Positions 25,470-61,945 of a stretch of DNA of 64,000 nt are shown here, in pieces (position 1 is the first letter of the stretch; each line of letters opens with the position of its first letter). The DNA is taken from contig CM037587.1 in assembly GCA_021018995.1 (NCBI GenBank), positions 4,094,866-4,158,865 of the forward strand, in the 5' to 3' direction. The position numbers and the translations under genes were made by a program. Source of the DNA: Chloranthus sessilifolius. Lineage: Eukaryota > Streptophyta > Magnoliopsida > Chloranthales > Chloranthaceae. The notes beneath the pieces are model-generated. The model worked only from the letters and a program-made list of their open reading frames with translations, searched no databases and was not told where the DNA came from.

Positions 25470-25547
25470 TATTTACTCGGGGACGGTAGGAGGTGCTCGA
25501 GAGGCATTCTTATATGGCGTACCATCTTTAGCTTTATCATACAATTG
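25470..25547 (+). CDS. SURE-like: SurE-like gene, internal exon (YSGTV segment)
   Basis: This 78-bp exon is preceded by a pyrimidine-rich acceptor ending TGCAG and followed by the donor GTATGT. It starts with the last base of a codon and encodes 25 residues plus the first two bases of a Trp codon. The peptide contains [13 protein letters not shown] and [12 protein letters not shown], which match the conserved YSGTVxGAREAxxxGVPSxxxS block of SurE proteins. In bacterial SurE this block directly follows the GxNxGxN metal-binding loop, so the preceding exon should end just before it. The upstream intron is at least 25 kb if the first exon lies outside the window. This is far shorter than standalone ORF cut-offs and was found from its conserved motif. 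Confidence 0.88.
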
Positions 25548-25745
25548 GTATGTAAAATTACTTTTGCACTTGCTTGGTTAGAATTCATGCTAATGCCGAT
25601 ATATAATCTCAAACTCATATACAAGCAAGAAAAGAGCAAAAGGAAAGGGAAAAGAGAAAAGTTAGCTTCTTCGAGGAGATTGGAGTGGCTATTGCTTGTT
25701 GACCATAGTCCCTTCCCCCGAACATAAGGGGCAGCTCCTTATAAA

Positions 25746-26059
25746 CATAGTTACCAAGTCGAATTCGCGAAAAGATCGCCGAGGCAAAAAAACGATATAG
25801 CTGTGAAAAATCGGCAAAATTCAGGAAAAAATTGAAAGCATTTGGGAAAAAGTAATACAATATTTAAAAATAATTTTTTATTTTTTATTTTGACAAAAAT
25901 GAGAAAAATTCTTTAGGAAACAAGTTTAAAACATAAAAATCGTGATTCTAAATACGAGTATGGAAAAAAAAAACTGTTTTAAACGTGTTTCCGATGTTTT
26001 ACGAAGAAAATGCGTTTTAAACGAGTTTTTTTTCAATAAAACACATTTTGGTAACTATG
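25746..26059. mobile_element. hAT-type MITE, CATAGTTACCAA group
   Basis: Termini CATAGTTACCAAGTCG at the left and CATAGTTACCAAAATG as reverse complement at the right. Flanking 8-mers CTTATAAA and CTTGTACA match at 6 of 8. The right half has AAAATGCGTTTTAAACGAGT-type repeats. Non-coding. It lies about 200 bp past the first visible SurE-like exon. Confidence 0.75.
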
Positions 26060-26329
26060 CTTGTACACTCAACTTCTTGTCTTGTGACTTAGTGAGCATT
26101 CTACACCTATTCTTTCTTTATGTACAAAGGGGGTGACGTCGGTTACAGGCCATATCGTTGCTTCACCTGCCAATCCATCTTATCTTTGCTAGCCTTTCCC
26201 ATACTTATTTTCAAGTTTTTTGGCTTGGTCTTCCACTCTAGCATTTTTTCAAAAATCTATATTACAAGGGAACGACTCTCCTAACCGTCATTTAAACACC
26301 AAAATGGAGTTTAAATGATCTTCCAACAT

Positions 26330-26477
26330 CAATGGTTTAAGATGTGGCTGATCCGAACCGTCAAACTGATAGATCATAAGTTGAAGTGCAACAGTCCCAA
26401 AAATGATGTTTTGGAGAGATTTAAACCATCCGATCTGTGGACTATAATGGCAGATGATGAAACATCTTAAACCATTG
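26330..26477. repeat. small inverted-repeat element
   Basis: A perfect 16-bp inverted repeat, CAATGGTTTAAGATGT at 26330-26345 and its complement at 26462-26477, encloses about 116 bp of non-coding DNA. Probably a MITE; no clear target duplication. Confidence 0.6.
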
Positions 26478-26878
26478 CTGAATTGATTATGTTCTGGTGA
26501 TTGGTCACATAGATCTCAGGAAGAGGAACAATAATCCAATGTGTAGCACAAATTACTGCAAATGACATTGGCGATTTATATATGACAAGTGGCAAAATGG
26601 TTAGGATATTTGAAAACGAAATTATTCTAACTTTCTATGCAGTCAATTGCAAAATGTGTACCCAAAAACCTCGTCATGGGTACAAAAATCGGATAGAATA
26701 GCTGACTTGCGTAACTGGCACATTTGAAATTTCATTGCTGTGGTGGTAAATATTATTTCTTTCATCTTCATCATTTGCAAAGTGAGTTTTTTCTTTCCAC
26801 CCTAGAACATGTAATTTTCTAATACCTCCCACTTCTCCATTTTGACAGTTTGAAATAACTTGTATTTTTTTTTGGGGG

Positions 26879-27264
26879 GTACCTTTAGATCCCACTGAGT
26901 CTTTGAGTTCACCCACTTTGAAAACCCATTGGCTGCTTTGAATCAGACGATGGAGATCATTTTCATCCCAATCTTTCACACGATGGATCTTGAGATCATG
27001 GGCGTACAATCAGGTGGTCAGTTTTTGATTTCACGTGGCACACATCCTAGAAAAGTGCCCTTAGCATCACGTAGAACTCATCACGCTCAAACCTGAATGT
27101 AAAATCTCTTTTTTGGGATGTGTGCCACATGAAATAAAAAAATTGAACCCCTGATGGTACGCCCATGATCTCAAGATCCAAATGTGAAAGATTGGGATGA
27201 AAAATGATCTCCATCATTGGATTTAAAGCAGTCAATGGGTTTCAGTGGGTGAATTTAAAGGTAC
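26879..27264. repeat. foldback element (long inverted repeat)
   Basis: Arms of about 165 bp with a short loop. The left arm GGTACCTTTA...GATGGAGATCATTTTCATCC pairs with the right arm GGATGAAAAATGATCTCCATC...TTTAAAGGTAC. A GATCTTGAGATCATGGGCGTA-type core is shared. Related sequence occurs at about 7500-7775. Non-coding; would form a long hairpin if transcribed with the gene. Confidence 0.75.
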
Positions 27265-27479
27265 TTTTTTTTCTTTGCTCATGTTAGTTGCCTCTGTTTG
27301 ATGATGTTATATTAAATTACTAGCCTTGGGTATAAAATAGGTTAGTCTATTTTATACTTGTATGCCGATATTTTGCTTATTTTCTCATTCTTCATCTATC
27401 ATTTTTATTGTGGTATCATACCATCTTCAATCATCAAGTAACTTATGTCAACTCATTAACAAGATTGTAGTAGGGGTAG

Positions 27480-27572
27480 ACTAACATGATCAAATCTGCA
27501 TGGAGAAATAAGATTCACAAAGCCAACCCAAATAGATAGGACAAGGTGATGATGATTGTGATGATGTTCTTG
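27480..27572 (+). mobile_element. 3' end of an RTE-type LINE
   Basis: Reads SAWRNKIHKANPNR then a stop, the conserved C-terminus of plant RTE ORF2 (xEWRxRIHxADPK), followed by the GATGATGATTGTGATGAT tail typical of RTE 3' ends. Only about 90 bp. Confidence 0.7.
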
Positions 27573-27753
27573 TCACTTCACTGCCCATAGCATCATACTA
27601 TTATGTTAGATGATATATAATATAATTTCCATTTTAAAACAAATATAAATATGTTTTTGTTGGTTTTTAAACTTAAGGAGGTTTGATCCTAAATTTTTTT
27701 CCATGATGTGCTTTGACTGGAAATCAAAGCTTATATATAGCCTCACCCTTCAT

Positions 27754-28182
27754 CCTGGTTCAAAAATTTCAGTAAACCTATACACATATTGGTAACCCAC
27801 CAATCCGATCTGTATCGGTATATGAGCCAATACATATCCAGTTATCGGTCAATACATGATTAATGTATCAGTCAAATTAACGACTGATATGTTCAATGTA
27901 TCAGTTGTATCGGCCTATACTTCCAAATTATCGAAATCATCAATTGATAATTTCAATAATTTGAAAATAAGTGTATCTGTCACAGGATCCACTTATTTTA
28001 AAATTATTGAAATTATCAGCCGATAATTTCAATAAATTTGGAAAGTATCGGCTCCTACGACTGATACATTGAACATATCGGCTGATAATTTAGCTGATAC
28101 ATAGGGGCTCAATACATTTGAATGTATCAACCCGATGACTTCCGAAATCGATGTATCGGTTTTGGTAAGATTTTGAACCATA
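27754..28182. mobile_element. non-autonomous hAT-type element, GATACGTATC group
   Basis: Termini CCTGGTTCAAAAATTTC at the left and TATGGTTCAAAATCTTACC as reverse complement at the right. Flanking 8-mers CCCTTCAT and CCATTCAT match at 7 of 8. The interior is filled with palindromic AAATTATCGAAAT/GATAATTTC and ATGTATCGG motifs. Non-coding. Confidence 0.75.
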
Positions 28183-28190
28183 CCATTCAT

Positions 28191-28206
28191 GTGGGGGGGG
28201 GGGGGG
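28191..28206. repeat. poly-G run
   Basis: A run of about 14 G directly right of the MITE at 27754-28182. Confidence 0.9.
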
Positions 28207-28209
28207 TTG

Positions 28210-29952
28210 ATACATTTTGAACCATATGTGCAACTCGCACCTAGATGTCCAAGAACAATAAAAATGTGGTGCAAACACTTGCACTCACTAATCAAGTGGT
28301 CATGGTACACACCATGATCCAAAAAACTGAAAAACTGACTAAACACTAAGCCTACAAAGTGTTCTTGGCACCAACATGGCCACACGGCCTAAATAATGAC
28401 CATACCATCATGAAAGAGGGCATGACATTACACAATAAATTTATAAGCCCATACATCATCTCCACCATCCATTCCCGCATCACCCATCATTGAAAAACTA
28501 GAAGCGGCCATCATTCACACAACCATCAAAGAGAACCATAGCTACATCATTTATCACATCAACATAACAACCACTCGGATATGATCAACAAACAAATCTT
28601 GCATTGGCAAAGAAGCCCAACGATAGCATCCATTATTCCTTACGAACGTCTTATCGAACACCTTGCGAGCAAGCATACCAACAGCCATATGCATTGAAAT
28701 ATAACACCATTACAAGCCACCAAAAGCACCACCATGAGCAACACATCAGTGAGCAACATCAGTAGTAGTGAAGGCAACAGCACCAAAATATTTTTCATTT
28801 CCATCAAGTTCAACCACTGATATTGCAAGCTACTTCAAACCACCTCAAACAATAATGTATGCATCACTTTTATCCACACCAAAACTATTAGCCCCAACAA
28901 CAAGCACAAATACCACCACATCAAGAAAAAATATCCCCGAAATTGCCCCTTGATATGTATCACAGACATTTCCACAAACCACTACAATGCAGTCTTTACT
29001 ACCTGCGTCGAATCTCAAACTACATCACCAATCACCAACCTATCAGTTGCCATAAGCTTCAGGACAAGACACCGTTCCTTTTTTTTTTTGTTCTACCATG
29101 GCTACAACAGTAGCTCTGTCCATTTTTTCCTTCACATTTTTCTTCAATGGCTGCTGCTGCCACAGCTTCCACAACAATTTTTTTCTTCTTCCATGGCTGC
29201 CATAGTTACCAAGTCTAGGTACAGGAATAAAATGGCTCTGAAATATATGGAAAAAATGGTAAATTTCGGCAATTTTGGATAAAAAAGGGGAAAATTTCAG
29301 CAATTAAAAATATTAATAATTATGAAAAACTAGAAAATGTATATTTTGACCAAACACGGGTTTTAAACGGGGAAAAAACTGGAAAAATCATTTTTTCGTA
29401 AAAAACAGGTTGAAAATGCGTTTTTCTGGAAAAAAGGGGTACTTTTCGAAAAAAAATGTTTTTTTTTTGGTCCACTTTTTTTCTCAAGAAAATGCATTTT
29501 AAATGCACTTTTTCCCCGAAAAGACGCGTTTTTGGTCACTATGATGGCTGCTACAGCAGCAACATCTATAACTACTTTTTTTTTCTTCTTCCATGGCCGC
29601 TACAACAGTACCATCTACAGCACCACACCAACCCCGTCTAGAACTTTTTTCTTCCATGGCCTGCTATGACAGCACCATCTACAAAACATTTTTTCTACAA
29701 CACCACCATCTACATCATCTTTCTTTTCTACAAGAGCACCGTCTACATCCGAGAGCTCTCATGGTCTCGAGATTCTCTCTCCAAAGGCTGCAGAAGTCAG
29801 TTTATTTTTCTACATTGTGCAAACTTTCATTTTATAATTTCTCTTTCTTAAGAACATCCTTCGAATCGTCCAATTCTCGGACAGGACTTTCATCCTTGAA
29901 TCATAAATTCTTGAGTAATAATAGGGTGCCTACACAAGGTCGCAGGTCCGAG
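28210..29952 (-). mobile_element. relic of the coding-poor LTR family seen as F
   Basis: 28235-28420 parallels 46603-46830 of element F (GTGGTGCAA...CACTTGCACTCAC, CTAAACACTAAGCCTACA, CGGCCTAAATAATGACC). 28640-28700 parallels 47425-47475 (CAGCCATAT). The CCATGGCTGC-rich part at 29095-29680 parallels the reverse complement of 45935-46050. No long coding frame and no LTR pair recognised here. Contains the MITE 29211-29543. Boundaries approximate. Confidence 0.55.
29211..29543. mobile_element. hAT-type MITE, CATAGTTACCAA group, perfect 8-bp duplication
   Basis: Termini CATAGTTACCAAGTC and, as reverse complement, CATAGTGACCAAAAACG. Flanked by ATGGCTGC on both sides (29203-29210, 29544-29551). 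The interior has AAATGCGTTTTT / AAATGCATTTTAAATGC repeats. Non-coding. Confidence 0.82.
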
Positions 29953-30348
29953 CATAGTCACAAAGTCGGAAGTTGGCAATAAATTGACAAGGGTCTAAGT
30001 TGGGAGAAATCGGCAAAAATCGATCGAAGTCGAAAAAAATCATGGAAACTAAAAACAAATATCGTATTATAATTTAAGTTAAAAATAATGATTTTAAAGA
30101 AAATAGGCAAAAACAAGAAGAGCAGCGAGCTCTGAGAGGGGCAGGCATCACAGAGGGTGATAGCCCTAAAGGTTTTTTTTCACTTTAAGTATAAGTAAAA
30201 AAAGGAAAAAAAATCAGACATCACAAACATCGCCAATTAATCGGCCGAGTTGCCAACTAGGCCGATTAATACGCGATGTAGTCTGAATGACTGCAAGTCG
30301 CTGAATTTTTCCGATTTTTGAAAAATTTCGGAGACTTTTGTGACTATG
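29953..30348. mobile_element. hAT-type MITE, CATAGTCACAAAGTC subgroup
   Basis: Termini CATAGTCACAAAGTC and its reverse complement GACTTTTGTGACTATG. Flanking 8-mers GGTCCGAG and GGCCTGAG match at 6 of 8. Contains GGCCGA/TCGGCC motifs near 30240-30270. Non-coding. Confidence 0.75.
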
Positions 30349-30852
30349 GGCCTGAGTCCGGCTCACCTATCAAAAAAAAAAAAAACTATAGGGTGTCTAC
30401 AAGTTAACAATTCATTGTTCAGAACAATCATAAAAACTAGGAGCTCACATATGGAATCTAATTTACTAGATTTTGGAAGTAATATTCTTTTATGCTCAAT
30501 AAATAAATGCATAAAGTCCATTTTTACTTTTATTAGTTTTTTCTTGGATTATTGAGTTGGATTTAAGATGACTGCAGCCTGTGCTTGTCCTTTGTAGCCT
30601 CACTGGCACAGTTTTCTTACGAGTACACTATTAAGCGCATATAACTTTCCTGCAGTTTGTTTTTTTGATTGGTAACAAATCAGAAAATATATTAAAAGAA
30701 CTAAACCCAAAAAGGCGAAATACAGGTAGTGAGCAACTACCCAGAAAACCAAAAAACAAAGATAAGAGATACCTCACTCAGCTACCCTGGAGATGTAAGC
30801 AATCTGAAAGAGGAAATCATCGAAACACCCATGCGAGGAGGAAGCGATCACA

Positions 30853-33800
30853 TTAAGGCTGTAGTAAACTATCCCAGTGACAACATAGCTCCTCTAAATT
30901 ACCCCCATCGCTACTTTCGCGGGCAAGCAACCATTGTAGCACCAAATCCTTAACCAAATTAACCACCAATTGAACAGGCCTAGCCTTTCTTTTGTACACC
31001 CTGTTGTTTCTTTCAAGCCACAGAGCCCACAAAATAGCGTGTCCCACGATCTGCCACAGATCACTCCTAAACTCCGAAAAAGACTGCTCTTCCCATTTCT
31101 CCAACAAGTCAGCCACATTCTCCGGGAACACCCAATGCATACCAAACAGAGATAGGACGCCCCCCAAACCTTGAAGGAGAAGGGACAATGTAACAAGATG
31201 TGACCAACCGACTTAGTAACTGACATGCACAGTAGGCAATTGTTCTTGACCATAATACCCTTCTAAGCAATTGATCTCTAGTTAGGATCCTCCCCCAGAC
31301 CACAGACCAACTAAAGAAACAGATTTTGGGTGAAATTTTGAGTTTCCAAAAGCGTAGTCACCCCGATCGACTACTTGTAGCTTCCACACCGGCCAAAAGG
31401 TGATGATAGAACTCCCCACGTAACGCCCTACCACCCACCCATGGATCTTTCCAAAACAACACCCTCTTTCCATCTCCCTAGCTGAATTTAATAGAAGACT
31501 TAAAGGATTCCGACAACCTTCTAACATCTTTCCACCACACCGAGGCATTTGAATTAAAGCTATCGAAGGCCCAACCATTGGGGTTAAGGTTGTACTAAGC
31601 CGTTACCACCTGTCACCATAATTTACCCCGTTGCGTTGGGCATCTGATTTTCCACAACCATTTCCCAAGTAACGCCTTGTTGAATACCCCTATATTCCAG
31701 ATACCAAGACCACCTTTAGAAATAGGCCAGCAACAAGTCTCCCAGTTAATAAGGTGAAGTTTACTCCCAGCCTGGTCTGCCTCCCACAGGAAGTTACAAA
31801 TACGAACTCCCTGATAACACTCATTGGCGTCGCATAGATAGACATATAGATAACCGGCAACGAAGCAAGGGTGGATTTAATGAGCGCCAATCTACCTCTG
31901 GAACTTAAAAGTTTCCCTTTCCATGTCGCAAGTCTTTTTTTGAAGTGAGGCGTAACACCTTCCCAATCAGTCACCTTTAATTTCCTGACCCTGAGAGGCA
32001 AACCTAGATACAAGAAAGCCAAGGTTTCCTGACGACAATCAAACCTATCAATTAGATGGGCAATCGGCTCATTACCGATGTTAATTCCCGCCATCTTGGA
32101 TTTGTGGAGGTTTACCGTTTGACCCGAGACTTCCGTGTAAATAGTAAGGATATTAATGACATTTTGATCCTTTTCATCATTCGACTCACAGAAAACCACC
32201 GTGTCATCCGCATATTGTAGATGCGAGATAGAGAGCCCATTATCCGCAACCATAAAACCATTGAAGCTATTTAACAAGGACCCCTTAGAGAGGAGTCGAT
32301 GCAGAGCCTCCCCTATAATGTTGAACAACAAAGGAGACAAGGGATCCCCTTGACGCAGCCTTTGAGAGCTCCGAAAGAAGCCCCTGGGACACCCATTAAC
32401 AAGAATAAAAAATCTCGCCAATCCATAGCATCCCTTAAGACAATGTCTCCATCTCTCCCCAAATCCCATTCGACCCAAAACATAATGGAGGAAACTCCAA
32501 TCAACCCTGTCATAGGCTTTTTCCATGTCTAACTTGAAGACAACCCCCTTATCCTTTCTCCTGAAGGCCGAATGAATAATTTCGTGGGCAGTAAGCGCAA
32601 TATCCAGCAACTCCCTCCCTGGAATAAAAGCCCCTTGAACATTAGAAATAATCGATCCTATAACCAATCTGAGATGATTAGCAAGCACCTTGTAGGTGCA
32701 CCCAAGAAGACTAATAGGTCTAAAATCCCCCACAAACAAGGCTCCGTCCACCTTAGGAATCAACGAGATGAAAGCCAAGTTAGTGATCTTCGCAATGGTC
32801 CCCGTGAAAAAAATTCCTTGAAGAAATTGAAGAAATCTGCCTTCACCGTATCCCAAAATTTCTGAATGAACTCCATGGACAGCCCGTCCGGTCCCGGAGC
32901 TTTGTTCTTCCCTATGCTGAAGACAGCTGACCTAATCTCCTCTTCCGAAAAGGGGGCCTCAAGAGTAGTTCTCTGAACCTCTGAAACCATGTCAAACTGA
33001 AGACCATCTAGCTTTGGCCGATTCACCCCATCACTGGAATAGAGCTGCTTGTAGAGATTAACCAGCTGTAGTCCAATCTCTTCCTCCAAAGTAAACGAGG
33101 GTTCCCCAATTTGAAGTTTTGAAATTCTATTCCGAGCCCTTCTGCCATTCGCAAAATTGTGAAAGAGCTTGGTATTCCCATCTCCTTCCCGAAGCCAATG
33201 AATCTTCGATTTCTGCCTCCAAATGGTCTCCTCTTGGAGACATTTCAGATTATAGCCGATGCGGAGCGCCTTAGGAATATCCCTCTCCTCCTCATTCAAA
33301 CCCCCTTTCTTCAAACCCATCAAAAGTTTTGTTCTCGCGCAAGAGATGCTCCTTAACCAAGGACACATCATGGAAGACATTTTTGTTCCACTTCTTAATC
33401 TGCTCGTTAATTCTTTTAATCTTCGAAGAGAGGATATACGTAGCCAAGCCGACAATCCCCTCATCCCACCACTTAGGCACGAGATTGCAAAAGGCTTCAC
33501 TCCCTCGCCACACATTCTCGAATCTGAAGGGAGAAGGCCCCAAACGAGAACACATGGAGGAAAGAATGATGGGTTTATGATCAGAAACCGTGGAGGGCCA
33601 GCAAAGCACCTCAGCAGTCAGCGAGAGATCAAGCCATCCCGTTGAGCAAAGAAAATGGTCCAATTTGCAGAAGTGGGGAACTCTTGCCCATTCGTCCACA
33701 TGTATTGGCTCCCCGACATTGCCAAATCAATTGAGCACATTCCGCAATAAAGTCTTCAAAGGAGGCCATCGCTCTTTTATCAACTCTCCCCCCAATTTTT

Positions 33801-34233
33801 TCTTCCAGCCTTCGGATAATATTAAAATCTCCCCCAAAGCACCACGACTCGATCCATCTGTTACATGACGCACTGAGCTCTTCAAAGAAATGATCCCTTC
33901 GTTCGTCCAAATTACTCCCATAAACCCCGATAAAACATGAAGATTTTTATTATCCCTATCTCTAAGAAAAGCAGAGACCGAGAACTCTCCCACATTGAGT
34001 TCCATCAGCTCCCAGTGAGCTTTGTGCCATGCAAGGAGTACTCCCCCTTTGGTCCCCATCGCGTTAAGAGCTTCACACTCCCAATCTCCTCGACCAAGCA
34101 CCATCGCAACCAAGCTATGCGACGTATCGTCCCACGTGGTTTCTTGCAAAGAAACCACCATAGGTTTCATCATCTTGATCATCGATTTAACAATAGCCCT
34201 CTTATGAGGGCCCCCAACTCTCGGACGGTCCAC
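30853..34233 (-). pseudogene. L1 LINE ORF2: endonuclease, reverse transcriptase, zf-RVT
   Basis: The apurinic endonuclease lies in three frames between 34233 and 33292, with VVSLQETTW, GVLLAWH, FGGDFNIIRR and SDHKPIIL (the catalytic Glu, GGDFN and SDH motifs). A linker frame at 33515-32760 ends GKNKAPGPDGLSMEF. The reverse transcriptase is open from 32856 to 31690: FRPISLLGCTYKVLA, FKLDMEKAYDRVDW, RQGDPLSPLLF and YADDTVVF, with the two active-site Asp residues kept. The zf-RVT end (31303-30853) has ILTRDQLLRR, CLLCMSVTKSVGHILLHC and WALWLERNNRVYKRK. At least five frame changes, so no intact ORF2. Genomic context: intron of the SurE-like gene, antisense. Confidence 0.85.
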
Positions 34234-35504
34234 GAAACAAATTTAATCATTGAGAACACAAAAACCATTCACCCAGGAAGCCGACCAAAACCCTGACAAC
34301 CTACGGGCCGGGCGCCCCTCATTCTTTCTCCTCTCCTCGATTTTTAGCCATCCTCTTCGACTTGGTATAGAACATGCCCCATTTTAATCGTTGGAGATCT
34401 CTTCTTCCCTTCGTTCTAATCTCGTACCTTTGTTTCTTCCTCTGTTTCTTTATCCCTTTGAAAATCTCACTGAGCTGTTCATGAGAGCCCATGAACGACA
34501 TTTCGAGATCCTTACCCAACTCAATAATCTGCTCAGTCTGATCACGATTTGTCTTAGCCTCTCCCAAATCCCCCATTTGAGGAATAGAGGAATCCGCAAC
34601 TTCGGCGGAAGAAACCTCACCCGAGCCTTCCAGACGAACTATCGATCCCAAGGGTGATTCAGTGATTACCTCTTCTCCGTGGTTCCCCCCATCTGCCATA
34701 CAAGAGTTCACACAACCCCTGGAAGCAAAAAAAGCATTAGAAAGAACATTAAACTCCAAAGGGAAAGACGGAGAAAAACCGAAAACGAAATAGAGGGAAA
34801 AGCAACAGGGCCCGAGTTGGTTTGGCCCAGAGGACCCAAAGGTGGTTTGGTCCGATCTGACCCCATTAGCTTCAAATGTGATGGGTCCACTTTCACTGAA
34901 GAGGCCTTAAAGTAGGTAGAGGTCCGGTCCACAGAGGAGGCATGCGAGCCCATACACAAACCAGCGTGATGGATACTCCTAACTTGATGTGAGGGATCCT
35001 CGAGGATCTGATATGTACCACTCCTTCGTACCACCCGCTGAATCGGACGATATTCCAATCTGGTTAGGAGGTAACGAGTTCGCCACCCAAGAAAAAGTAG
35101 ATTCATAACTAAACTCCATCTTGTGCCTATGTCTCGATGGTGCCACGTGAACTAAACTCCACACAAGCCTCATTCTCGCCCCCATACACAGAAAGTATAA
35201 AGTTAGGTGTGGAAGTAAAGGCAGCACTCCCAAAAAAATCTCATTAGAAAGGTAGCCTTTGTCTCCATAAATGTCGTCGTATCCCTTTCCATTCTTCACC
35301 TCTTCCTCCCTCCATTCCCTTCAACAGACTCTCTCGATGTCAGGCGCAATAAATTCGGACTTCCCACCTGCCCCAAGCACAAAATTAAAACTGTCTGTCC
35401 TTCTACCCCACCCGCTGTCATTAATGAATTTAATTTCATTAATGCACCCCTTTCCTATAATAGGGACACCCGAAGATTCGGCAGGACGACCATCCAAAGC
35501 AGCT

Positions 35505-35735
35505 CTCCCCCCATCCTTGTTGGCAACACATTCTTCCACCTTAGCAACCACCGAAAAATCATCATGTCTCAACACCCACCTCCCCCCCCCCCCATCCTTG
35601 TTGGCAACACATTCTTCCGCCTCAGCAACCACCGAAAAATCATCATGTCTCAACCATCCCCCATCCTTGTTGGCAACACATTCTTCCGCCTCAGCAACCA
35701 CCGAAAAATCATCATGTGTCAGCCATCCCCCGGTG
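35505..35735 (-). repeat. tandem repeat in LINE ORF1, HDDFSVVA unit
   Basis: Three copies of a unit of about 66 bp encoding W-L-x-HDDFSVVAEAEECVANKDGG; the most 5'-placed protein copy is (L)THDDFSVVA and the last follows a short Gly-rich insertion. On the DNA the copies are nearly identical, so the expansion is recent compared with the element's other damage. Confidence 0.85.
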
Positions 35736-36735: not shown

Positions 36736-36827
36736 ATTAATCATTACTTGATATTTCATCATATTTTATGTGTCTTGATTGTGCATTGTATAAATCATCA
36801 TGGAACATGTAAAATGCATATGAGTAT

Positions 36828-36990
36828 GATCATAGTACATAAGCATTCAAGTGCATTTAATCATGGTACATAAGCATTGAAGTGTACACAATCACGGTGC
36901 ATAAACATTGAAGTGTATATAATCATGGTGCATAAACATTGAAGTGTATATAATATGTTCATGGTACATAAACATTGACATTTAATCACA
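36828..36990. repeat. minisatellite, CATGGTACATAAACATTGAAG unit
   Basis: Five copies of a unit of about 31 bp (ATCATGGTGCATAAACATTG, AAGTGTATATA), the right-hand ones most alike. Confidence 0.82.
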
Positions 36991-51815: not shown

Positions 51816-51818
51816 AAC

Positions 51819-53542
51819 TCAACGACTAAGCGCATTAGCAGCTTTGTTCTCAGCACCAGCCTTATGCTTTAAAACAAATGTGAACCCTTGAAGGTACTCG
51901 ATCCACTTCGCGTGCCTCGGGTTCAACTTTTTCTGGGAAACAAGGAAACGTAAGGCTTCGTGGTAAAAAAACAACACAAATTCTTGCAGTCTCAGGACAT
52001 GTTTCCAATACCACAGAGATCGGACGACCGCATAAAACTCCTTGTCATAGGTGGAGTATTTCTGCCTTGCCTCATTGAGTTTCTCACTAAAATAGGCTAC
52101 AAGATGGCCTTCTTGGCTCAGCACTCCGCCTATGCCTACACCCGATGCATCACATGCTACTTCGAATACTTTAGAAAAGTCCGGTAGGCGCATGACGGGT
52201 GCAGTAACCATTCTCTTTTATCTCGGCAAAGGTCCTCGTCGCGGCTTTGCTCCCCAAGAACTCCCCTTTTCTCATGCAATCGGTAATGGGAGCCATGATG
52301 GTGCTAAAATTCCGGATGAAGCGACGATAAAACATGACCAAACCGTGGAAGCTACGGACTTCATGAATATTCCGAGGTTCGGGCCACTCCACAATGGCCT
52401 TAACCTTCGTAGGGTCCGCAACCATCCCGTCTACCGAGACAATAAATCCCAAGAATACAACAGTGTTGCATGAAGGTGCACTTCTTGAGATTCGCATATA
52501 GCCTTTCTCCCCTCAAGGTTTCGTAAACCAACCTCAGGTGGATAATGTGTTGTTCCTTGTCTGGACTGTAAATCAGAATGTCATCAAAGTATACGACAAA
52601 GAACTTGCCAAGGAATGACCTCAACACTTGGGTCATGAGCCTCATAAATGTGCTCGGGGCATTGGAAAGCCCAAAAGGCATGACCATCCACTCATAAAGA
52701 CCGTCTTTGGTCTTGAAGGCGGTTTTCCATTCATCGCCAGGGCGAATACGAACCTGATGGTAGCCACTTTTAAGGTCTATCTTTGAAAAGATAGTGGCTC
52801 CAACCATCATGTCAAGCATGTCATCAAGCCGCGGTATGGGAAACCGATATTTAACAGTGATCTTATTAATCGCACGGCTATCCACACACATGCGCCATGT
52901 ACCATCTTTCTTAGGTGTGAGGAAAGCTGGTACGGCACACGGGCTCAGACTCTCTTGTATGAAACCCTTTTGTAGGAGCTCACTGACTTGCCGGGTCAAC
53001 TCGGCATGCTCAACCGGGTTCAACCTGTAGTGGGGCAGGTTCGGTAATGTCGATCCGGGAACTAAGTCAATTGCGTGTTGAATGTCACGCATGGGAAGGA
53101 GCTCATTAGGTAAGTCCTCAGGGAAGACATCCGCAAATTCATTCAAAATGGGCTCTACCTCCTTGGGGTACTCGCAGACTGACTTAGAAGTACTCTCAAC
53201 AGTAACAACGACATACACAACACTCTCATCTTTCGATGCTCTCTCAAATTCTAAAGGGGTCACAATATTGATGACCTTGGATTGACCTCCCTTCTTCTCA
53301 ACTCTATTGACTGATGGTGCTTTGGGAGCCAAAGGGTTAAGAGTGATTTTCTTGCCCTTATAATTGAACGTACAAACGTTAGATCGCCCAAAAATAGTCA
53401 CGTTCAAATCATAGAGCCATTGCCTCCCTAAGATAATGTGGCACATCCATCGGCACCACATCGCACCATAAGCTGTCGGAGTATGAACCCAACTGTATGG
53501 GTACACGACACCTCTGAGATACGGGAATGGATGAGGAGTCAA
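51819..53542 (-). pseudogene. G4 reverse transcriptase and RNase H region
   Basis: RT motifs: [52 protein letters not shown], and the active site [12 protein letters not shown] near 52560. The connection has [16 protein letters not shown]. RNase H: FEVACDASGVGIGGVLSQ, YSTYDKEFYAVVRSLWYWKH, ending near KAGAENKAANALSR at 51819. Confidence 0.88.
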
Positions 53543-54914
53543 CCCATGCGACTTTGCAATGTCTCAGGTGGGCTTTAGGTGTAAGCCCTAAGCGGGTGAC
53601 GGTATGTTCTGACACCACATTGGTGCAGCTTCCGCTATCCACGATTACCCTACAACTCTTTGTCCCACATGTGGCAAAGGTGTGGAAGATGTTCTCCCTT
53701 CGCCAATCCTCCTTTTCATCCCGTTGAGGTTGTGCAAAGGCACACCTCACAACTAAAGTGCGACCCATGCTATCACCTTCATCGTCACTAGGTGTGGCAT
53801 TTGGCTCAAAGACCTCTTCCTCGTAAACTCCTTCACTTTCTTCTCCTTCTCCGTCAATAAAGAGATTCCTTTGTGGGTCTCTCGTAGGACACTGGGCGGC
53901 AAAGTGTCCCAACCCTTGACATTTATAGCATTTGACATGAGATCCACTCTTCGAGGATTCTCCAACTACACCCTTACCTTTGTCAAACCTCACATTGGTA
54001 GATGTGGGTTGCGTGGGTTTGGCAAAAGGGTTTCAAAGATTAGATTTCACTTCACGGCATTTTAATTGACCGGTGTGAAAATCAGATCGCCTAGTCACCG
54101 CCATTTTCAAATATCGTTCAAGGTCTTGAACGACAGTGTAACACTCGGCAAGAGTCTCAACAGGGTGGGAGACTAACTCTTTTTGTAAGTCATACCTCAA
54201 CCCAGTACGAAATCTGGATAGAGTGACTTGAGGGTCTTCGGATACCTTGGCTCTCATCATGAACTCTTCAAATTTGCCATTGTAATCCGATACGGGCATA
54301 CTACCTTGGCGCAAATTTTGCCATTGGTCAAGGAGACGGTGGTAGTATGAAGAAAGGACGTACTTCTTTGTAAGTCGTTTATTCATGTCCTCCCAATGGG
54401 TAATGGGAGTACAACCCGCATTCATTCTGATGCGTTCAACGTTGACCCAAAAGAGTCGGGCTTGGCCTATGAGCTTCATCTTAGCAAGTCTAACACATCT
54501 TTCATCGCTCATGCCAAACCACTCAAAGTGCTGGTCCATATCGGATAACCAATCGAGGAAAACCTGAGGGTCTAGTCTTCCATCGAAAGTCGGGAACTCA
54601 ACTCGGACATTTTTGAGGAGTCTCCCTTCCGGGTCGTAGTCATCTCCATGATGATCTAACCTATAGTTCCGGTTCCGATTATGTTGGTAGCCGTTTCGTT
54701 CAAATCGGGGACCATTACGCTCACGGTGTGGTTCAAAGTACTCATCACCCTCGTCTAACCGATTGGCTCGGTCTAATAACCTCTCATTGGATGTTTCGAG
54801 AGTCCTTTGGGCTGCCTCTAAGGTAGTCATTCGATCATTGATCAATTTTAGGTCAGCCCTCAGGCTGTTAAGAGCTTCGGTAATCCCACTCATGTCCATG
54901 GTGATACGGGTCAC
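53409..54914 (-). pseudogene. G4 gag and protease region
   Basis: Gag from 54914 (MTRITMDMSGITEALNSLRA): coiled-coil-like start, an Arg/Asn/His-rich stretch (RNGYQHNRNRNYRLDHH), then the gag core (FPTFDGRLDPQVFLDWLSDM, LSDMDQHFEWF). Zinc knuckle CYKCQGLGHFAAQC near 53920, an acidic linker, and the aspartic protease motif VIVDSGSCTNVVS near 53640. Confidence 0.85.
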
Positions 54915-55053
54915 TACTGACGGGTTCTAGAATGGAATGCAAGATGAATATTTTGGCCAAAACAAAAATAATATGTGATGAAAATTAAAACGCAATGATT
55001 GCAATGTCACACGATATGCCCTAACCTGGAACCTAGGTCTCTGATACCAAAAC

Positions 55054-56123
55054 TGACGCAGGGTGGTTCCCTAATCTACGTGAATGATATGATTGATTTG
55101 CCGAAATTAAATTGGAATTAAGTTAAGCACTAAAATTCACAAAATATAATGAATACCTTCGGTCTTCTTAGTATTCCATGGGAGATTCACGTATGCTTCA
55201 GGCAGGGTTCAGTCCAAGCGCTAGATCCGTTAGGTTGCAGCGCAGATCGATCCTAGAGATAGAACTCTAGGTTTTTCCAGATTAGGGCGCTCACGATTCA
55301 ATGATGGGATCACTGATTTTCTCTGCAGATCAGGTGCGGAAGGTTTAATAACTCTGCTGGGCTCTACGGTTGTTGAATCGGATCGATTCAAGGATTTAGA
55401 GAAATTTCGGGTTTAGGATTTCACAAGAAGATGGTCGATTTAGGGTTGTAGAATCACGCAATCAAAGATAAAGAGATAGATAGATAGAATTGTAGGGTTC
55501 ACACCCTTGGCTTCGCACCAAACCCTTCTCGGGAAGAAGATTCACTCTTCGTAGAGGCTCATCTCAAGCACATATAAGCAAAAGCTCTTTTCATTCATAA
55601 TCAATAATCAATCCTAATTACATTGTTTAAGGACCTTATATAGGAGGTCTTACAATAAAAGAAAACCCTAAAACGAATATTAATTAAAAGACAATTAAAC
55701 CCTTAACACAAAAGTTCGAAATTAGACTTCTAAAACGACTAAGACTACTTGACTCGATTTCGATTGAACGAAATTGAAAATCGTTCGATCGCAATTTCGA
55801 TCACAATTTCGTTCGATCAAAATTTTCGATCACACTTTCGTTCGATCGAAATTGAAAATCATTCGATCGAAATTTTCGTTCGATCGAAATTAAAATTCGT
55901 TCAATCGAAATTCTCAATTACATAAAATATCGAAATATCGCCGTTGTCATTTCGATCGATCGAATTTTAATTTCGATCAATCGATTTTTCTGTGCTCCTT
56001 CAATTTCCAGAATTTCATCTTTTTGCCTCTTTCGCCTAGTTTTGATTTCCATTTCACTTCTTCCGACGTCGGTACACGCGAAAAGGTTCATATCCGATGT
56101 CTACAATGTCGGCGTCCCCATCA
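55054..56123 (-). repeat. LTR of G4, right (5' LTR)
   Basis: 1,070 bp, TGACGCAGGGTGGTTCCC to GGCGTCCCCATCA. TATATAGG near 55636; array at 55755-55990, shorter than in its partner. Confidence 0.9.
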
Positions 56124-57356
56124 AAGGTCCATGTAGATTTCTTCCTTGAGATCACCATGAAGAAATGCATTCTTCACATCAAGCTGAGATAGTGGCCAGT
56201 CTTTGTGGACAGCCAGAGATAACAATGCCCTGATTGTGTTGGACTTGGCTACAGGTGCAAAAGTGTCCTGATAGTCCACTCCTTGTGTTTAAGTGTACCC
56301 CTTCGCTATAAGCCTTGCTTTGTATCTTTCGATAATGCCATCAGGTTTATACTTAACTGTATACACCCATTTGCAACCAACAACTCTCTTTCCTTCTGGG
56401 AGTTCAACAATTTTCCATGTTTGATTCTGTTCCAGAGCATTCATCTCCTGAATCATAGCATTCTTCCATTTTGGCTGCAACAAAGCATCATAAACAGTAG
56501 AGGGAAGGGTGACAGAATCAAGAGAACAAATAAAACTATAATGGGATGATGAGAGATTGTGATATGACACATACTTACTGATAGGATGACAAGTGCACGA
56601 TCTAGGAAGTTTTCTGTGAGCAATGGGTAGATGAAGATCAGAACCAAGAGGACCCTCTTCGGGTAAGGGATCCTGGTTGGTAGTCTGAGAAGGTGACTCA
56701 TCCACATTCTTATACGTAGTGGCTTTAGCAATACTTTTGTTGTTCCTTCGCACATACATCTTTCCCTTTCCATATTTATCAAAGATGGGTTGTTCGCTTT
56801 TCTGTGGTTCAACAGTTTCGTCATCCACTTCACAAATTTCACCCTCTCCCATAGGTAAGGCTCTACACATCTCAGAGTGCTCTTCATTGTTACGTTGGTT
56901 CTCCTCCTGAAGAGGACTCGGAGGACAAGAAAAAGGAGTGCCCTCAAAGAATGTGACATCCATGGTGACTATCACACGACGAGTGAGAGGATCAAAGCAC
57001 TTGTATCCTTTCTGAGAAGAGGGATACCCAATAAATATACACTTGATAACCTTAGGATCAAGTTTACTTCTCTGAATTTTGGGGATATGAGTAAAACATA
57101 AGGACCCAAAGATACGGGGTGGCACTATGAACAGAGGTCGACGAGGAAACACAAGGTTGAAGGGAGAATGTCCGTCCAGAATAGGTGTAGGTATTCGATT
57201 GATGAGGTAGGCAGCAGTGAGAACAACTTCACCCCAGAGATATTTGGGAACCTTCATTTCAAACAATAGAGATCGCGCAACCTTGAGAAGATGCCTATTT
57301 TTCCTTTCAGCAATCCCATTCTGTTGGGGGGTATAAGGACAAGTTGTTTGCCACAC
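56124..57356 (-). pseudogene. copia E integrase end and reverse transcriptase start
   Basis: Integrase C-terminal part (PYTPQQNGIAERKNRHLL, GEVVLTAAYLINRIPT, IFIGYPSSQKGYKCFDP), a variable linker, and the start of the reverse transcriptase (MNALEQNQTWKIVELPEGK, GCKWVYTVKYKPDG). It continues to the G4 insertion site at 56123/56124. Confidence 0.85.
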
Positions 57357-59311
57357 AATTCCATGAGAGTTAAGGTAAGATTGAAGGTGTGAGAGGAATA
57401 TTCCTCACCATTATCAGATCTAAGGACCTTAACATGCCCATGAAATTGTGTGCGAACTAGTTTGTGAAATAGAGGAAAGATAGAGACAACTTCATCTTTG
57501 GTGCGCATAAGAAAGAGCATAGTGAGTCTAGTACAGTCATCAATAAAGCTAACAAAATAACGATAACCATGCAGAGCAGTAACAGGGGAAGTCCCCCACA
57601 CATCAGAGTGAATAACTTCAAAAGGAATAGCACATTTACTACCATTGAAGGCATAAGAAGTGTGAACATGTTTAGAGAACTGACAAGTCTCACAATTAAA
57701 CAAACTACTATTAAATCCATGAAATTTTTTCGAAAATAAAAGTTTCAAACGACTAATATGAGGGTGGCCACAGCAGGAGTGCCACAATTTAGCTTCATTA
57801 ACAGAAACCACCATAGCTGCAGGAGGAGATGCACCATGTAAATCTTGAAGGAGGTAGAGTCCCTTCTCTTCAGTACCATGACCAAGGATCTTCCCCGATT
57901 TCAAGTCTTGGAAAACACAGTGTGATGGAAAGAATGTCACATTACAATGTAAGGAATTGGTAATTTTACTGACAGATAATAGATTCATAGGCATATTGGG
58001 AACTAAAAGAGTAGAGTCAAGGGACAAGGTGCCTAGTGGAACATTCCCTTTACCCCTTACGGGAACAAGGGATCCATCAGCAATGCGAATATGCATAGAA
58101 TTAGAAAGACTAGATACGGATGAAAATAAATATGTCATACCAGACATGTGATCCGTAGCCCCAGAATTGATGATCCATGGGGACTGAGAGGTTGAGGTCA
58201 CATGGGCAAACCCATAGGTACCTGACTCAGCTATGTGGGAGGAAGATGTCTGTCCTTGTGTCACCGTCATGCGCTGAAGGCGGCCCTGGAGATCGTGAAG
58301 CTCTCTCTGTAAGCTCTGGAAATCAGCTGGAGGTGGAACGGAAGGAGGGGTGCTCTGACTAACAACTGAACTAGAAGTGTCCTCAGTGAAAGACTGAAAT
58401 GCGGGACCCGGAAGAAATTTAGGTTTCCCATGCAAGTCCCAACATCTTTCTCTGGTATGACCCTTCTTGCTACAATGAGAACACAACAATTTCTCTCTTT
58501 CTTCACGGGAGAGGCTCCCATGACCACCACCTCTACCACTCAACTTGCCTCCCCCACGGCCAAAAGAAGTAAAGGATGGTAGGGCAGATATCTCAGATAT
58601 ATCACCATCAGGAATCTGCATAAACTGTTGCATGCTCTCCTCATGCTGAAGGAGGGCATACACTGTATCCAGTGGGGGACACTTCTCTCTGCCGATAATG
58701 TTAGATTTAACATTCTCATATTCAGGTTTAACCCCTTTTAGGAAGTTGAACACTCTCCTTCTCTCAGTATTTTTATAAACCTTGCTGGTACACGAGCTGC
58801 ACAGTTCTTCTTGATATTGGGCTAATTCATCCCACAAACTTCTCATTTGAGTGTAATACTCTCCAATAGTCTCATCGCCTTGCTTCATAGCGTTAATTTT
58901 GTCACTAACTTAAAACATTTTTGTGAGATTTTGTTTCTGCAAGAACGCATCTCTCACAGCCTCCCATAATTGTTTAGCATCACTGGCATACATAAAGGAA
59001 TCACTAATGTCTAGTTGCATGGAGTGCAACAGCCATGCCATGACAGTTAGATTGTCACTTTTTCAATCAATATACTTAGGGTCATCTTCTTTGGGTTTCT
59101 AGATAGTCCCATAAATGTAACCCAATTTTTTCTTCATCCCTAAGTACATAGCAGCAGACCGTGACCACGAGAGATAATTGGCTCCATTCAGCTTCTTGGT
59201 AGTAATTTGTAAGTTATGAGAGACATCTCCCCCGCCAACGATCCCGGATTTATTCTCGTCCATGATCAAAAGATACCGAGGTTCCAAATGCCTACACAGG
59301 CTTTTCAACAA
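57254..59311 (-). pseudogene. copia E gag, protease and integrase region
   Basis: Gag N-terminus around 59250-59100 (KLNGANYLSWSRSAAMYLG) and gag body from 58888 (MKQGDETIGEYYTQMRSLWD). Zinc knuckle LLCSHCSKKGHTRERCWDLH near 58470. Protease WIINSGATDHMSG near 58160. Integrase HHCC zinc site (LWHSCCGHPH ... CETCQFSKH) and core start (FIDDCTRLTMLF, VLRSDNGEEYSS) to 57400. Domain order is that of Ty1/copia. Part of an LTR fossil; a few breaks. Confidence 0.85.
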
Positions 59312-60208
59312 ACTGGTAGAAGACCCACAGCTTTCAAATGCCTACACAGGCTTTTCAACAAACATAATTTGTGTCCCAACCAAATCAGCACCACGGGTTG
59401 ATTCAGACATTAAATCGAACATGTCTAATGGCTGATTTTCAGGCAACAATTCTGACAACTAAAAGATGCTTACAATACACCAACAATACAAATCAATTAA
59501 CTTCACCGGAGAATAATACTCTTCTCTTCACAGCTATACAGCATCACACACCTCACAAAATAAGCTCTAATGGCTGTAGTCAATGTAGCTACCATGTTCA
59601 TAACCATGGAGAACAAACAATTTTATCGGAAAGCACCAATCTGAGTTGCAACTGTCTATACAGCAGTTGACCATGGAAAATATCACAAAAAAACAGTTAG
59701 AAGACTTACCAGCAATCGGTAGTTACAGAGGATCAATCTGATATTGATTCGAAGGTTTCCGGCGAGAAATAACACCTCCGGCGATGTGGAGTTCAGTTTC
59801 CGGCAGTTCTTCACATCCAGGCAGCTCTGTAACCTTCAAAAAATACTGCATCACTTCAGAAGAGGCATCGAAATGAGGTTCTGGGAAGATTTCGATGCCT
59901 CACATCAGATCTAGGAGGAACCTGGTTCTATGGAGTTACTGTGACGTAGGTGAACCGAGGTTGAAGACGAAGTGGGTTCTCCCTCTTCCAGTGCTCGGAT
60001 GAAGATGATGTAGAAGGGAAAGTTGCTCAGAACAAAAAACTGAGCAAGTTCCCGGCAGTTTCGATGGTTCCGGTAGGGTTCAAGCGACAACTGATGTCAG
60101 CATGACGTCATCGCTGACATCAGCAGTTTTCTGGTGACGCCAGCAACAACAAGAGAAAAGGAAAAAAAAAAAATTGGCAGAGATGATCGGTTCAAGGCTC
60201 TGATACTA
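59312..60208 (-). other. copia E 5' leader
   Basis: Non-coding leader between primer site and gag. It holds a direct repeat AATGCCTACACAGGCTTTTC at 59287 and 59337, 50 bp apart, spanning the gag start. Confidence 0.6.
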
Positions 60209-60458
60209 AGTCAAAACTGTAATTTAGAGTTAGGGTTTAGAGAGGAGGAAGAAGAAGAAGAAGAAGAAGAAAGATATTTGAGTTGAGTCTCAAGTGACTC
60301 AAATCCCAATGCAAAATACTATATATATCATCTTAGCATATTCACGTATTACATGGTTCCCGAGTTAAGTGAATTGTACAACTTAAAATTCACTTAACTA
60401 CACACACACCCAAAGTTGCTTACTATACACCCATACAATGGAAATATCATCTCCAACA
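60209..60458 (-). repeat. LTR of copia E, right (5' LTR)
   Basis: 250 bp, AGTCAAAACTGTAATTTAG to ATCTCCAACA, with a GAA microsatellite at 60246-60273. Confidence 0.88.
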
Positions 60459-61019
60459 ATGAAGACCCAGTTATCATTGCATTCTAAGAATCAATTTTTT
60501 TATTTTTAAATGACATTTCGTCGAACACTTGGTAACAGAAATAAAACGATCACAAAATGAATAATCTGAACATTTGGCAGGAACAATAAACAAAATAATT
60601 TGAACACTTTCTAAATGGCATTTCGTCGAATACACAGTAGAAACTTTATATGGCCATGAATAGTCACACGATAAAGCATCAGCAGCTCTAGATACACACT
60701 ATAACTCAACCAAACTGCAACAAAAATCAAATGAACAAGCAAATCTGATCCACCAACAACCAACTCTGAGGAGAAATACCTGCAACTACTTAAGAAACCC
60801 TAAAAATCATGAATACCTTCTTTCACAGGCAGAGCATCATTTTAAAAAACAGCATCACTTGGAGCTCATCAAAGACTGATAGAACATGAAGAGAACTGTC
60901 GAGAAAGGCCTTTCTCACAGCAAAACCCCCGAGGCTTTTATTGGGCTGCTAATGTAAACATGAACAGAGCTAATAACAACACCAAAAGGATCAAGCTCAC
61001 TCTGATACCAAGATAAACC

Positions 61020-61258
61020 AAAGAGGCATTAGCCCAGTTGGTACGCTCCCTCCAATGTGAGGGAGTAGGTCATGGGTTCGATTGTCGTCCTCCACGCTGT
61101 TTCCAACCCTTGTCTTTACAAGCTGTGGGTTGGGTTCTGTTAGTTAATCCTCACCACTATAGTTGGTGCTCCCCTCACGCCGCTTCGCCACTGTCACACG
61201 TGTATGCATGTCTGCTCCTCAGTTCTTGGGGCTGTCTCGTTCGCCATATCTCAAAAAA
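61020..61258 (+). mobile_element. tRNA-headed SINE at the LTR/PBS junction of F
   Basis: About 240 bp. The head has an A box TAGCCCAGTTGG (61030-61041) and B box GGTTCGATT (61075-61083) at RNA polymerase III spacing, like a tRNA gene but with no cloverleaf 3' half. The body is GC-richer than its surroundings, and it ends in a short A run (61253-61258). AGATA occurs on both sides (61011-61015, 61258-61262). It separates F's primer site from its 5' LTR. Could also be a tRNA-derived gene fragment; SINE is far more likely. Confidence 0.72.
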
Positions 61259-61265
61259 GATATAT

Positions 61266-61580
61266 AAAACTAAACTACCTATGGACCCTTTTAGGGTTTA
61301 TTATTCTTAGAGGAGGGAGAGAGATGAGAGAGAAATGCACAAAAGACTACATTGTTTCATTCATTCGTAGTGTAATTATATGGAATGTACCCTTTATATA
61401 AGGAGCAACCCTAGTTACTAATGACATTCCATACATTACTTCTGACCCCACTTACTAACATGACACACCACACTTAACACTAATACTACCAACACACCAC
61501 ACACCACACAAACTACTAACACACTACACTTTACTACTAATACACCATGACACATTGACACTAATTTTAACATCTCCAAC
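61266..61580 (-). repeat. LTR of F, right (5' LTR)
   Basis: 315 bp, starts AAAACTAAACTACC and ends ACATCTCCAAC. TTTATATAAGG near 61391. Longer than its partner by a CA-rich segment. Confidence 0.82.
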
Positions 61581-61765
61581 TCTATTGACTTATTCGGTTG
61601 TGGGTGAGTTGGTTTCTATAGGTCAATTACAAATTTTTTCTTTATTTTATTGAAAATTTACTGATTTTATATTTCTCTTTGTGCAACTTGCATTTGTGAT
61701 AATAATTGAACATTTTAATGGATACTTAATGTTATGATGGTTCTTCTTGTGGCTCCAACCAATAG

Positions 61766-61945
61766 GGGTATAAGGTGACTAAACAGGGGAAAGCAATGAT
61801 CAGAATTGGGTGGAAGCAAGTCATACCTAGCGATCTAGGAGGAAAGAACTCAGAAACGACAACTTTGGGAAATAAACCTGTAGCAGGGGCAGAATTGAAT
61901 TCCTCGGCAGTTCCATTACAAGAAGATATTTTGTTCAAGAGAGAG
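61766..61945 (+). CDS. SURE-like: SurE-like gene, internal exon (GYKVTKQGK segment)
   Basis: This 180-bp exon follows the acceptor CCAATAG and encodes exactly 60 residues in phase 0 after the previous exon. It begins GYKVTKQGKAMIRIGWKQV and ends LQEDILFKRE, as in plant SurE-like proteins (GYKLTxQGKSxxKMGWxQV ... LFKRE). The donor is GAG|GTGTGG, a weak but valid GT site. Without splicing the frame ends at a stop 18 codons on, at about 61991, and the added residues do not resemble the family. The family C-terminus (xxxLxEGFITVTPLGAL) is not seen in the remaining 2 kb. The intron before it is about 22.2 kb and holds the F/E/G4 nest. Confidence 0.88.

What the first reader, a model, noticed from the sequence alone, without database searches (positions are those of the whole stretch)
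25470..61945. One SurE-like gene stretched over more than 36 kb by TE-filled introns
Three short + strand exons (78, 154 and 180 bp) join in phase into a continuous SurE-like peptide, but lie 13.9 and 22.2 kb apart. Nearly all intervening DNA is nested transposable elements. The exons are intact while the introns hold more than 20 insertions, so splicing must bridge very long introns if the gene works.
Basis: partly seen in the sequence, partly recalled or inferred. Interest (0 to 1): 0.78.

Follow-up and report, generated by a model that had tools for sequence, protein, structure and literature searches.

The report
Ninety-kilobase plant SurE phosphatase gene
The three exons are real parts of one small plant enzyme gene whose ten exons are spread over about 90 kb by introns that contain many transposons; an old mRNA-derived copy elsewhere in the genome backs the exon joins, and long introns are common in this genome, so the case is clear but largely ordinary.

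Summary
They are exons 5-7 of a ten-exon gene at C4:4075553-4165318, 89.8 kb long with 88.6 kb of introns. It encodes a complete 300-residue SurE protein (Pfam E 9.4e-52). The missing TNDDG and VTPLGAL exons lie 19 kb before the window and 2.4 kb after it.

An intronless, broken copy on C2 is colinear with all ten exons. It preserves the 25547/39461 join exactly; the 39614/61766 join falls inside a deletion, with no intron sequence left. So the mRNA was once spliced this way.

The C4 gene kept family residues that the retrocopy lost: 10 of 10 sites polarised by a C9 paralog, 20 of 24 by bacterial SurE. Three intact LTR elements in the introns (22.3 kb) are less diverged than the retrocopy is from the gene, so the introns probably grew while the protein stayed conserved.

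Long introns are common here: 13 of 32 gene pieces sampled span 20 kb or more. Chloranthales and magnoliids are reported to be alike. The finding is correct, larger than stated, and a new example of a known kind. No RNA data were available.

The parts
25470..25547 (+). Exon 5 of the SurE gene ([25 protein letters not shown], plus split codons at both ends)
   Evidence: joins to exons 4 and 6 preserved without gap in the C2 retrocopy
39461..39614 (+). Exon 6 of the SurE gene ([13 protein letters not shown]...PTDVSNHK)
   Evidence: E 3.1e-25
61766..61945 (+). Exon 7 of the SurE gene (GYKVTKQGKAMIRIGWKQ...FKRE). Exons 8-10 lie beyond the window at C4:4160545-4160610, 4161248-4161347 and 4165062-about 4165318; exons 1-4 lie before it at C4:4075553-4075674, 4086997-4087091, 4090100-4090167 and 4090632-4090675
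   Evidence: E 2.5e-32
1..25469 (+). Part of intron 4 (29,659 bp in all) that lies in the window
25548..39460 (+). Intron 5, 13,913 bp, GT-AG
   Evidence: splice join preserved in the retrocopy
39615..61765 (+). Intron 6, 22,151 bp, GT-AG
61946..64000 (+). Part of intron 7 (3,734 bp in all) that lies in the window
11806..20229 (.). LTR retrotransposon with intact ends in intron 4: TG..CA, 5-bp target duplication ACTTG, LTR divergence K 0.067
49161..56123 (-). Gypsy-type LTR retrotransposon with intact ends in intron 6: target duplication AAGGT, K 0.039; gag, zinc knuckle, RVT_1 and integrase zinc-binding domains
47785..60458 (-). Probable copia-type element (short LTR pair, K 0.048) into which the gypsy element is inserted; Pol_BBD, gag_pre-integrs, rve, SH3 and RVT_2 domains at 56292-58909
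   Evidence: no pair of TG..CA ends with target duplication found
31693..32931 (-). Reverse-transcriptase frame (RVT_1, E 4.2e-30) in intron 5, no flanking LTR pair found; LINE-like by inference
16038..16898 (+). zf-RVT frame (E 8.5e-23) in intron 4, remnant of a retroelement

Best explanation
This is most likely a working plant gene for a SurE-type phosphatase (5'/3'-nucleotidase family), the only intact copy of its type found in the genome. Its ten exons sit in 89.8 kb because retrotransposons and other repeats kept inserting into its introns. Shown by sequence: the complete 300-residue frame, GT-AG at all nine introns, conserved SurE residues, a broken retrocopy that records spliced mRNA, and better conservation of the gene than of that retrocopy. 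Inferred: the whole locus is still transcribed as one pre-mRNA, Pol II reads through the silenced transposons, and the spliceosome removes introns up to about 30 kb, with readthrough possibly helped by the IBM2/EDM2-type system known from Arabidopsis, which suppresses early polyadenylation in heterochromatic intragenic transposons.
For: Ten exons, 903-nt CDS, all nine introns GT-AG. SurE Pfam E 9.4e-52 over residues 6-198; PDB SurE chains match at E down to 3.5e-31. D11, D12, S44, N101, N105 and G114 are kept, each the same in 80 of 80 bacterial SurE compared. C2 retrocopy colinear with exons 1-10: joins 2/3, 3/4, 4/5, 5/6, 8/9 and 9/10 align without a gap; 1/2 is blurred by small deletions nearby; 7/8 is present but followed after three bases by an insert of about 350 bp; 6/7 is lost in a 42-nt deletion. 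Gene versus retrocopy Ka 0.097, Ks 0.206, ratio 0.47, bootstrap 0.31-0.74 (267 of 300 codons: 26 had gaps, 7 more dropped as badly aligned). At the differing residues the C9 paralog agrees with the gene at 10 sites and with the retrocopy at 0; bacterial SurE 20 to 4, two of the 20 being near ties; an Arabidopsis SurE sequence recalled from memory 26 to 1. Three LTR elements with intact ends in the introns have K 0.039-0.067, below the gene-retrocopy distance (Ks 0.206; 3'UTR 35 of 233 sites differ).
Against: The retrocopy seems older than the three intact LTR insertions, so it proves the exon joins but not splicing over today's intron lengths. The 39614/61766 join itself is deleted in the retrocopy. 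The retrocopy, though broken, keeps one open frame over residues 54-248 of the protein, with two internal deletions that are multiples of three (12 and 42 nt), so it may not have been wholly free of constraint. The pairwise Ka/Ks cannot by itself say which copy is constrained. At 4 sites bacteria agree with the retrocopy. Donors of introns 6 and 7 (GTGATT, GTGTGG) are far from the usual consensus. Very recent loss of expression would leave no trace in the frame. The start codon and 3' end are inferred. LTR and genic sites may mutate at different rates.
Confidence: 0.88

Rival explanations
1. The C4 locus is a recently silenced pseudogene: transposons have cut off transcription and the intact frame is only young decay.
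For: No transcript data; introns of 11, 30, 14 and 22 kb; in Chloranthus spicatus expression declines when introns exceed 40 kb (passage of PMC8626473).
Against: The three intact LTR elements have had time to diverge to K 0.039-0.067, yet no stop, frameshift or broken splice site is seen in the gene. Where residue changes since the retrocopy can be polarised, most fall on the retrocopy. None of the gene's introns reaches 40 kb.
Confidence: 0.08
2. The exons belong to two or more separate transcripts or to fragments scattered by transposons and do not form one gene.
For: The genome does carry dispersed fragments of both SurE genes.
Against: All ten exons lie in order on one strand, with compatible phases and GT-AG sites, and the retrocopy holds them joined. 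The C9 paralog has its first five introns at the same places.
Confidence: 0.03
3. The long distances are assembly artefacts.
For: Transposon nests are hard to assemble (general knowledge).
Against: Three elements inside the gene have intact ends and target duplications; many other genes of the genome show the same pattern.
Confidence: 0.01

Closest known systems
Long, LTR-filled introns of Chloranthus spicatus and magnoliids (PMC8626473, passages read)
   Same: Genes over 20 kb are common (876 of 2,184 orthologs in C. spicatus); LTR elements are named as the main contributor to long introns.
   Different: The organism here is not named; its genome is 2.17 Gb, against 2.96 Gb in 15 pseudochromosomes for C. 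spicatus. Whether they are related was not tested.
Long introns of conifers such as Picea glauca (PMC4108047, passages read)
   Same: A few very long introns per gene and repeats in introns.
   Different: In P. glauca the repeats found were mostly short fragments; here three LTR elements with intact ends lie inside one gene.
Arabidopsis SurE-like genes At4g14930 and At1g72880 (sequences and family recalled; both loci are listed together under nicotinate and nicotinamide metabolism in a passage of PMC8371554)
   Same: C4 agrees with my recalled At4g14930 protein at 166 of 296 aligned residues; C9 matches my recalled At1g72880, including the NGDG motif.
   Different: The Arabidopsis genes are compact (recalled); the C4 gene is 89.8 kb.
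Bacterial SurE 5'/3'-nucleotidases (PDB 5ksq, 4gad and others)
   Same: Same domain and the same motif residues.
   Different: The main alignments shown stop near residue 196, with a second short match at about 253-277; the part between has no match there.

Membership tests
SurE family (PF01975) | Match to the Pfam SurE profile above its cut-off | tested here: met
   176 bits against a cut-off of 22.1, profile positions 1-186 of 189
SurE family (PF01975) | Conserved motif residues: the two Asp of NDDG, Ser of the SGAS motif, Asn of the SGIN motif (roles recalled) | tested here: met
   D11, D12, S44, N101 present; 80 of 80 bacterial sequences agree
SurE family (PF01975) | Metal-dependent phosphatase activity | not testable with these tools
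   needs an enzyme assay
Plant gene with transposon-filled long introns | Intact exons with canonical GT-AG sites separated by many kb that hold transposons | tested here: met
Plant gene with transposon-filled long introns | Transcribed and spliced across the long introns | not testable with these tools
   spliced in the past according to the C2 retrocopy; no RNA data here
Processed retrocopy (C2 locus) | Intronless copy of a multi-exon mRNA, including UTR parts | tested here: met
   colinear with exons 1-10, including the 3'UTR exon and about 20 nt of 5'UTR
Processed retrocopy (C2 locus) | Poly(A) tail and flanking target duplication | tested here: inconclusive
   no clear A-tail in the printed sequence; the longest repeat shared by the flanks searched is 7 bp. 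At Ks 0.2 both may have decayed, so the label rests on the exon joins

The most novel reading that the evidence does not exclude
The locus is a natural time series of intron growth under selection. A retrocopy fixes the exon joins before the datable LTR insertions; mobile copies of the exon 2-3 stretch carried to C3, C14 and C1 seem to keep an older, shorter state of intron 2; and a C9 paralog with the same intron positions stayed compact. Together they suggest that at least 22 kb entered one working gene without loss of the protein, and that intron growth is locus-specific rather than uniform.
Probability: 0.5. Interest if true: 0.45.

Novelty: new member of a known kind. Interest (0 to 1): 0.3.

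Why it matters
It shows with internal evidence, without RNA, that a small conserved enzyme gene of 0.9 kb coding length can be spread over about 90 kb and stay conserved. Such genes can be missed or split by gene finders that limit intron length, and the gene, its retrocopy and its compact paralog make a good test case for how plants transcribe and splice through transposon nests.

Tried and rejected
Decayed-copy reading: rejected because the broken copy is the C2 one, while the C4 frame, splice sites and conserved residues are intact. C9 as the 'real' compact copy of this gene: rejected; it is a different paralog (NGDG motif, different N-terminus). Its first six exons lie within about 1.8 kb, and no C-terminal exon was found in the 11 kb read, 8.7 kb of them beyond exon 6. 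I first took its D11G and N105S for decay, but the recalled At1g72880 sequence has the same NGDG and GSS, so they look like features of that branch. Host genes nested in the window's introns: 20 of the 32 frames of 140 aa or more were sent to Pfam. Eight had hits above the cut-off, all to retroelement-type domains (one is the general zinc knuckle zf-CCHC); two had only hits below the cut-off (Zn_ribbon_RanBP, DUF4283); ten had none. Twelve frames were not scanned. Dating the retrocopy against the LTRs suggests that it is older than the three intact insertions, so it cannot prove splicing at today's lengths; I had hoped it would. Species: not determined. Literature: searches (one search listed 20 of 1,768 papers, one search listed 8 of 11, the others all they found). 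No listed title concerned a plant SurE gene with long introns or a SurE retrocopy; these are listings only, apart from passages read. Searches (failed assertion; file not found) gave no result.
Full report
WHAT WAS CLAIMED AND WHAT IS THERE. The window is C4:4094866-4158865 of a 2.17-Gb genome in 32 contigs. The three exons are at the stated places, each with AG before and GT after. The frame does not start at the first base of exons 5 and 6, so a plain translation of those two gives nonsense; read in the correct phase they give [25 protein letters not shown], then W on the split codon, then [13 protein letters not shown]...NHK.

THE WHOLE GENE. A genome search with Pfam SurE found the TNDDG exon 19 kb upstream of the window. 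Comparison with a C2 copy and a motif query found the rest, including the VTPLGAL exon 2.4 kb beyond the window end. The gene has ten exons: 4075553-4075674, 4086997-4087091, 4090100-4090167, 4090632-4090675, 4120335-4120412, 4134326-4134479, 4156631-4156810, 4160545-4160610, 4161248-4161347 and a 3'UTR exon 4165062-about 4165318. Introns are 11,322, 3,008, 464, 29,659, 13,913, 22,151, 3,734, 637 and 3,714 bp, 88,602 bp together; all begin GT and end AG. The CDS is 903 nt, 300 residues. Pfam gives SurE at 9.4e-52 and the best PDB match is at 3.5e-31.

A FOSSIL cDNA. C2:24295033-24296481 (minus strand) is an intronless copy colinear with exons 1 to 10, with part of both UTRs. Six of nine joins align without a gap (2/3, 3/4, 4/5, 5/6, 8/9, 9/10), including 25547/39461 (5/6). 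Join 1/2 is blurred by small deletions. Join 7/8 is there, followed after three bases by an insert of about 350 bp. Join 6/7 (39614/61766) is inside a 42-nt deletion. The copy has a stop at codon 20, a net frame change in the first part of exon 2, and lost conserved residues, so I call it a pseudogene. Against that, it keeps an open frame over residues 54-248, and its 12-nt and 42-nt deletions are multiples of three. No clear poly(A) tail or target duplication was found. The clean absence of nine introns is still best explained by a spliced mRNA.

CONSTRAINT. Over 267 codons (274 aligned of 300, 7 badly aligned ones dropped) Ka is 0.097 and Ks 0.206; ratio 0.47, bootstrap 0.31-0.74. A ratio near one half is what one conserved and one free lineage would give. 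Of 47 residue differences (one a stop), the C9 paralog, which covers residues 2-187, decides 10, all in favour of the C4 gene. Bacterial SurE (80 sequences, mostly Bacteroidota and so not independent; a residue had to be commoner and seen in at least 8) decides 24, 20 for C4 and 4 for the retrocopy; two of the 20 are near ties. An Arabidopsis sequence recalled from memory decides 27, 26 for C4; this is a lead only. At the six differing sites where all 80 bacterial sequences agree (12, 101, 112, 114, 176, 282) the C4 gene keeps the residue and the retrocopy has changed it.

THE INTRONS. One search lists 22 direct repeat pairs in the gene region; nine were tested as candidate LTR pairs, with K from 0.039 to 0.117. 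Three of the nine have TG..CA ends and perfect 5-bp target duplications: in intron 1 (window -16061 to -9118, GTTCT, K 0.056), intron 4 (11806-20229, ACTTG, K 0.067) and intron 6 (49161-56123, AAGGT, K 0.039). They make up 22.3 kb, a quarter of the intron length. The gypsy element in intron 6 sits inside a probable copia element (47785-60458), whose domains are at 56292-58909. Intron 5 has an RVT_1 frame without an LTR pair. Lower bounds for repeat cover are 69, 61, 5, 39, 5, 38, 7, 49 and 20% for introns 1-9, measured against only 0.3 Mb of the genome; the figure for intron 2 includes the captured fragments described under 'noticed'. A 3-kb piece of intron 5 had 8,615 first-look candidates in the genome, and about 45% of it matched other places among the 40 scored.

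ORDER IN TIME. The nine candidate LTR pairs are less diverged than gene and retrocopy at neutral sites (Ks 0.206; 3'UTR 35 of 233). Silenced transposons usually mutate at least as fast as genes (established knowledge), so the three intact insertions are probably younger than the retrocopy: introns grew after it was made, while the protein stayed conserved. The same point limits the proof, because the retrocopy does not record splicing over today's lengths. Other repeats in the introns are more diverged (K up to 0.43), so part of the repeat load may be older than the retrocopy.

IS IT UNUSUAL HERE? Five unrelated families were used as a yardstick. Chaining neighbouring hits gave 29 gene pieces; with three pairs without a real intron that I had left out, 32. 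Of these 13 span 20 kb or more and 7 span 36 kb or more, although only one domain of each gene is measured. Some long chains rest on two hits with a large profile gap between them (one pair 64 kb apart, 293 positions) and could be chance. Better-filled examples are a phosphorylase domain of ten hits over 94.9 kb and a tRNA-synthetase domain of five hits over 76.5 kb. Of 52 gaps between hits adjacent in the profile (one of them an overlap, not an intron), 10 are 5 kb or longer, 5 are 10 kb or longer, and the median is about 400 bp. The SurE gene, with 4 of 9 introns over 10 kb, is at the high end but not alone. Chloranthus spicatus and magnoliids are reported to have long genes and long introns, with LTR elements the main contributor in C. 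spicatus (PMC8626473, passages), and conifers have long repeat-bearing introns (PMC4108047, passages).

THE PARALOG. C9:18760053-18761847 holds the first six exons of another SurE gene with introns at the same positions but only some tens to hundreds of bases long. It has NGDG in place of NDDG. Its C-terminal exons were not found in the 11 kb read. Exons 1-6 of the C4 gene cover 58.9 kb.

HOW IT MOST LIKELY WORKS. Shown: an intact gene, spliced in the past, better conserved than its retrocopy since. Inferred: one long primary transcript is still made and spliced. In Arabidopsis, IBM2 and EDM2 are thought to suppress early polyadenylation inside heterochromatic intragenic transposons (PMC10241880, passages); a similar system may be needed here, but this was not tested.

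VERDICT. The finding is right and bigger than stated, but belongs to a known kind.

Noticed in passing
C3:173293380 (L116, L123, L125), C14:60854212 (L117, L124, L126), C1:149028380 (L118): The end of exon 2, intron 2 and exon 3 of the C4 SurE gene occur in a repeated DNA unit of about 7.4 kb shared by C3 and C14 (96% alike), with a third copy on C1 (97% over 717 bp, the only part compared). On C3 no frame is longer than 141 aa, and one end of the unit reads GTAGTG; the other end was not resolved: probably a mobile element that captured a gene fragment. C4 intron 2 has 1.17 kb more than these copies, an insertion in C4 or a deletion in them.
   Followed up: partly
C1:138967103, C3:96428889, C11:112943419, C3:155485671 (L119-L122): Exon 5 of the C9 paralog with intron sequence (three of the four also with exon 6) is dispersed in four places, 93-97% alike among themselves and 88-94% like C9 in the matching pieces: another captured and multiplied gene fragment.
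   Followed up: partly
C2:24295435-24295790: Insert of about 350 bp in the retrocopy just after the exon 7/8 join; its ends look like short inverted repeats (TTATGGCCCCTAA / TTTAGGGGCATAA), so perhaps a small DNA transposon.
   Followed up: no
window 46178-46466 / 61257-61583: A gappy repeat pair encloses the copia/gypsy nest of intron 6, perhaps a third, outer layer of insertion; no perfect target duplication with TG..CA ends.
   Followed up: partly
C9:18760224-18761847 (L114): The compact SurE paralog has G for the first Asp of the NDDG motif and S for an Asn, both invariant in 80 of 80 bacterial sequences, as does my recalled Arabidopsis At1g72880, so this plant branch may have lost or changed its metal chemistry.
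   Followed up: partly
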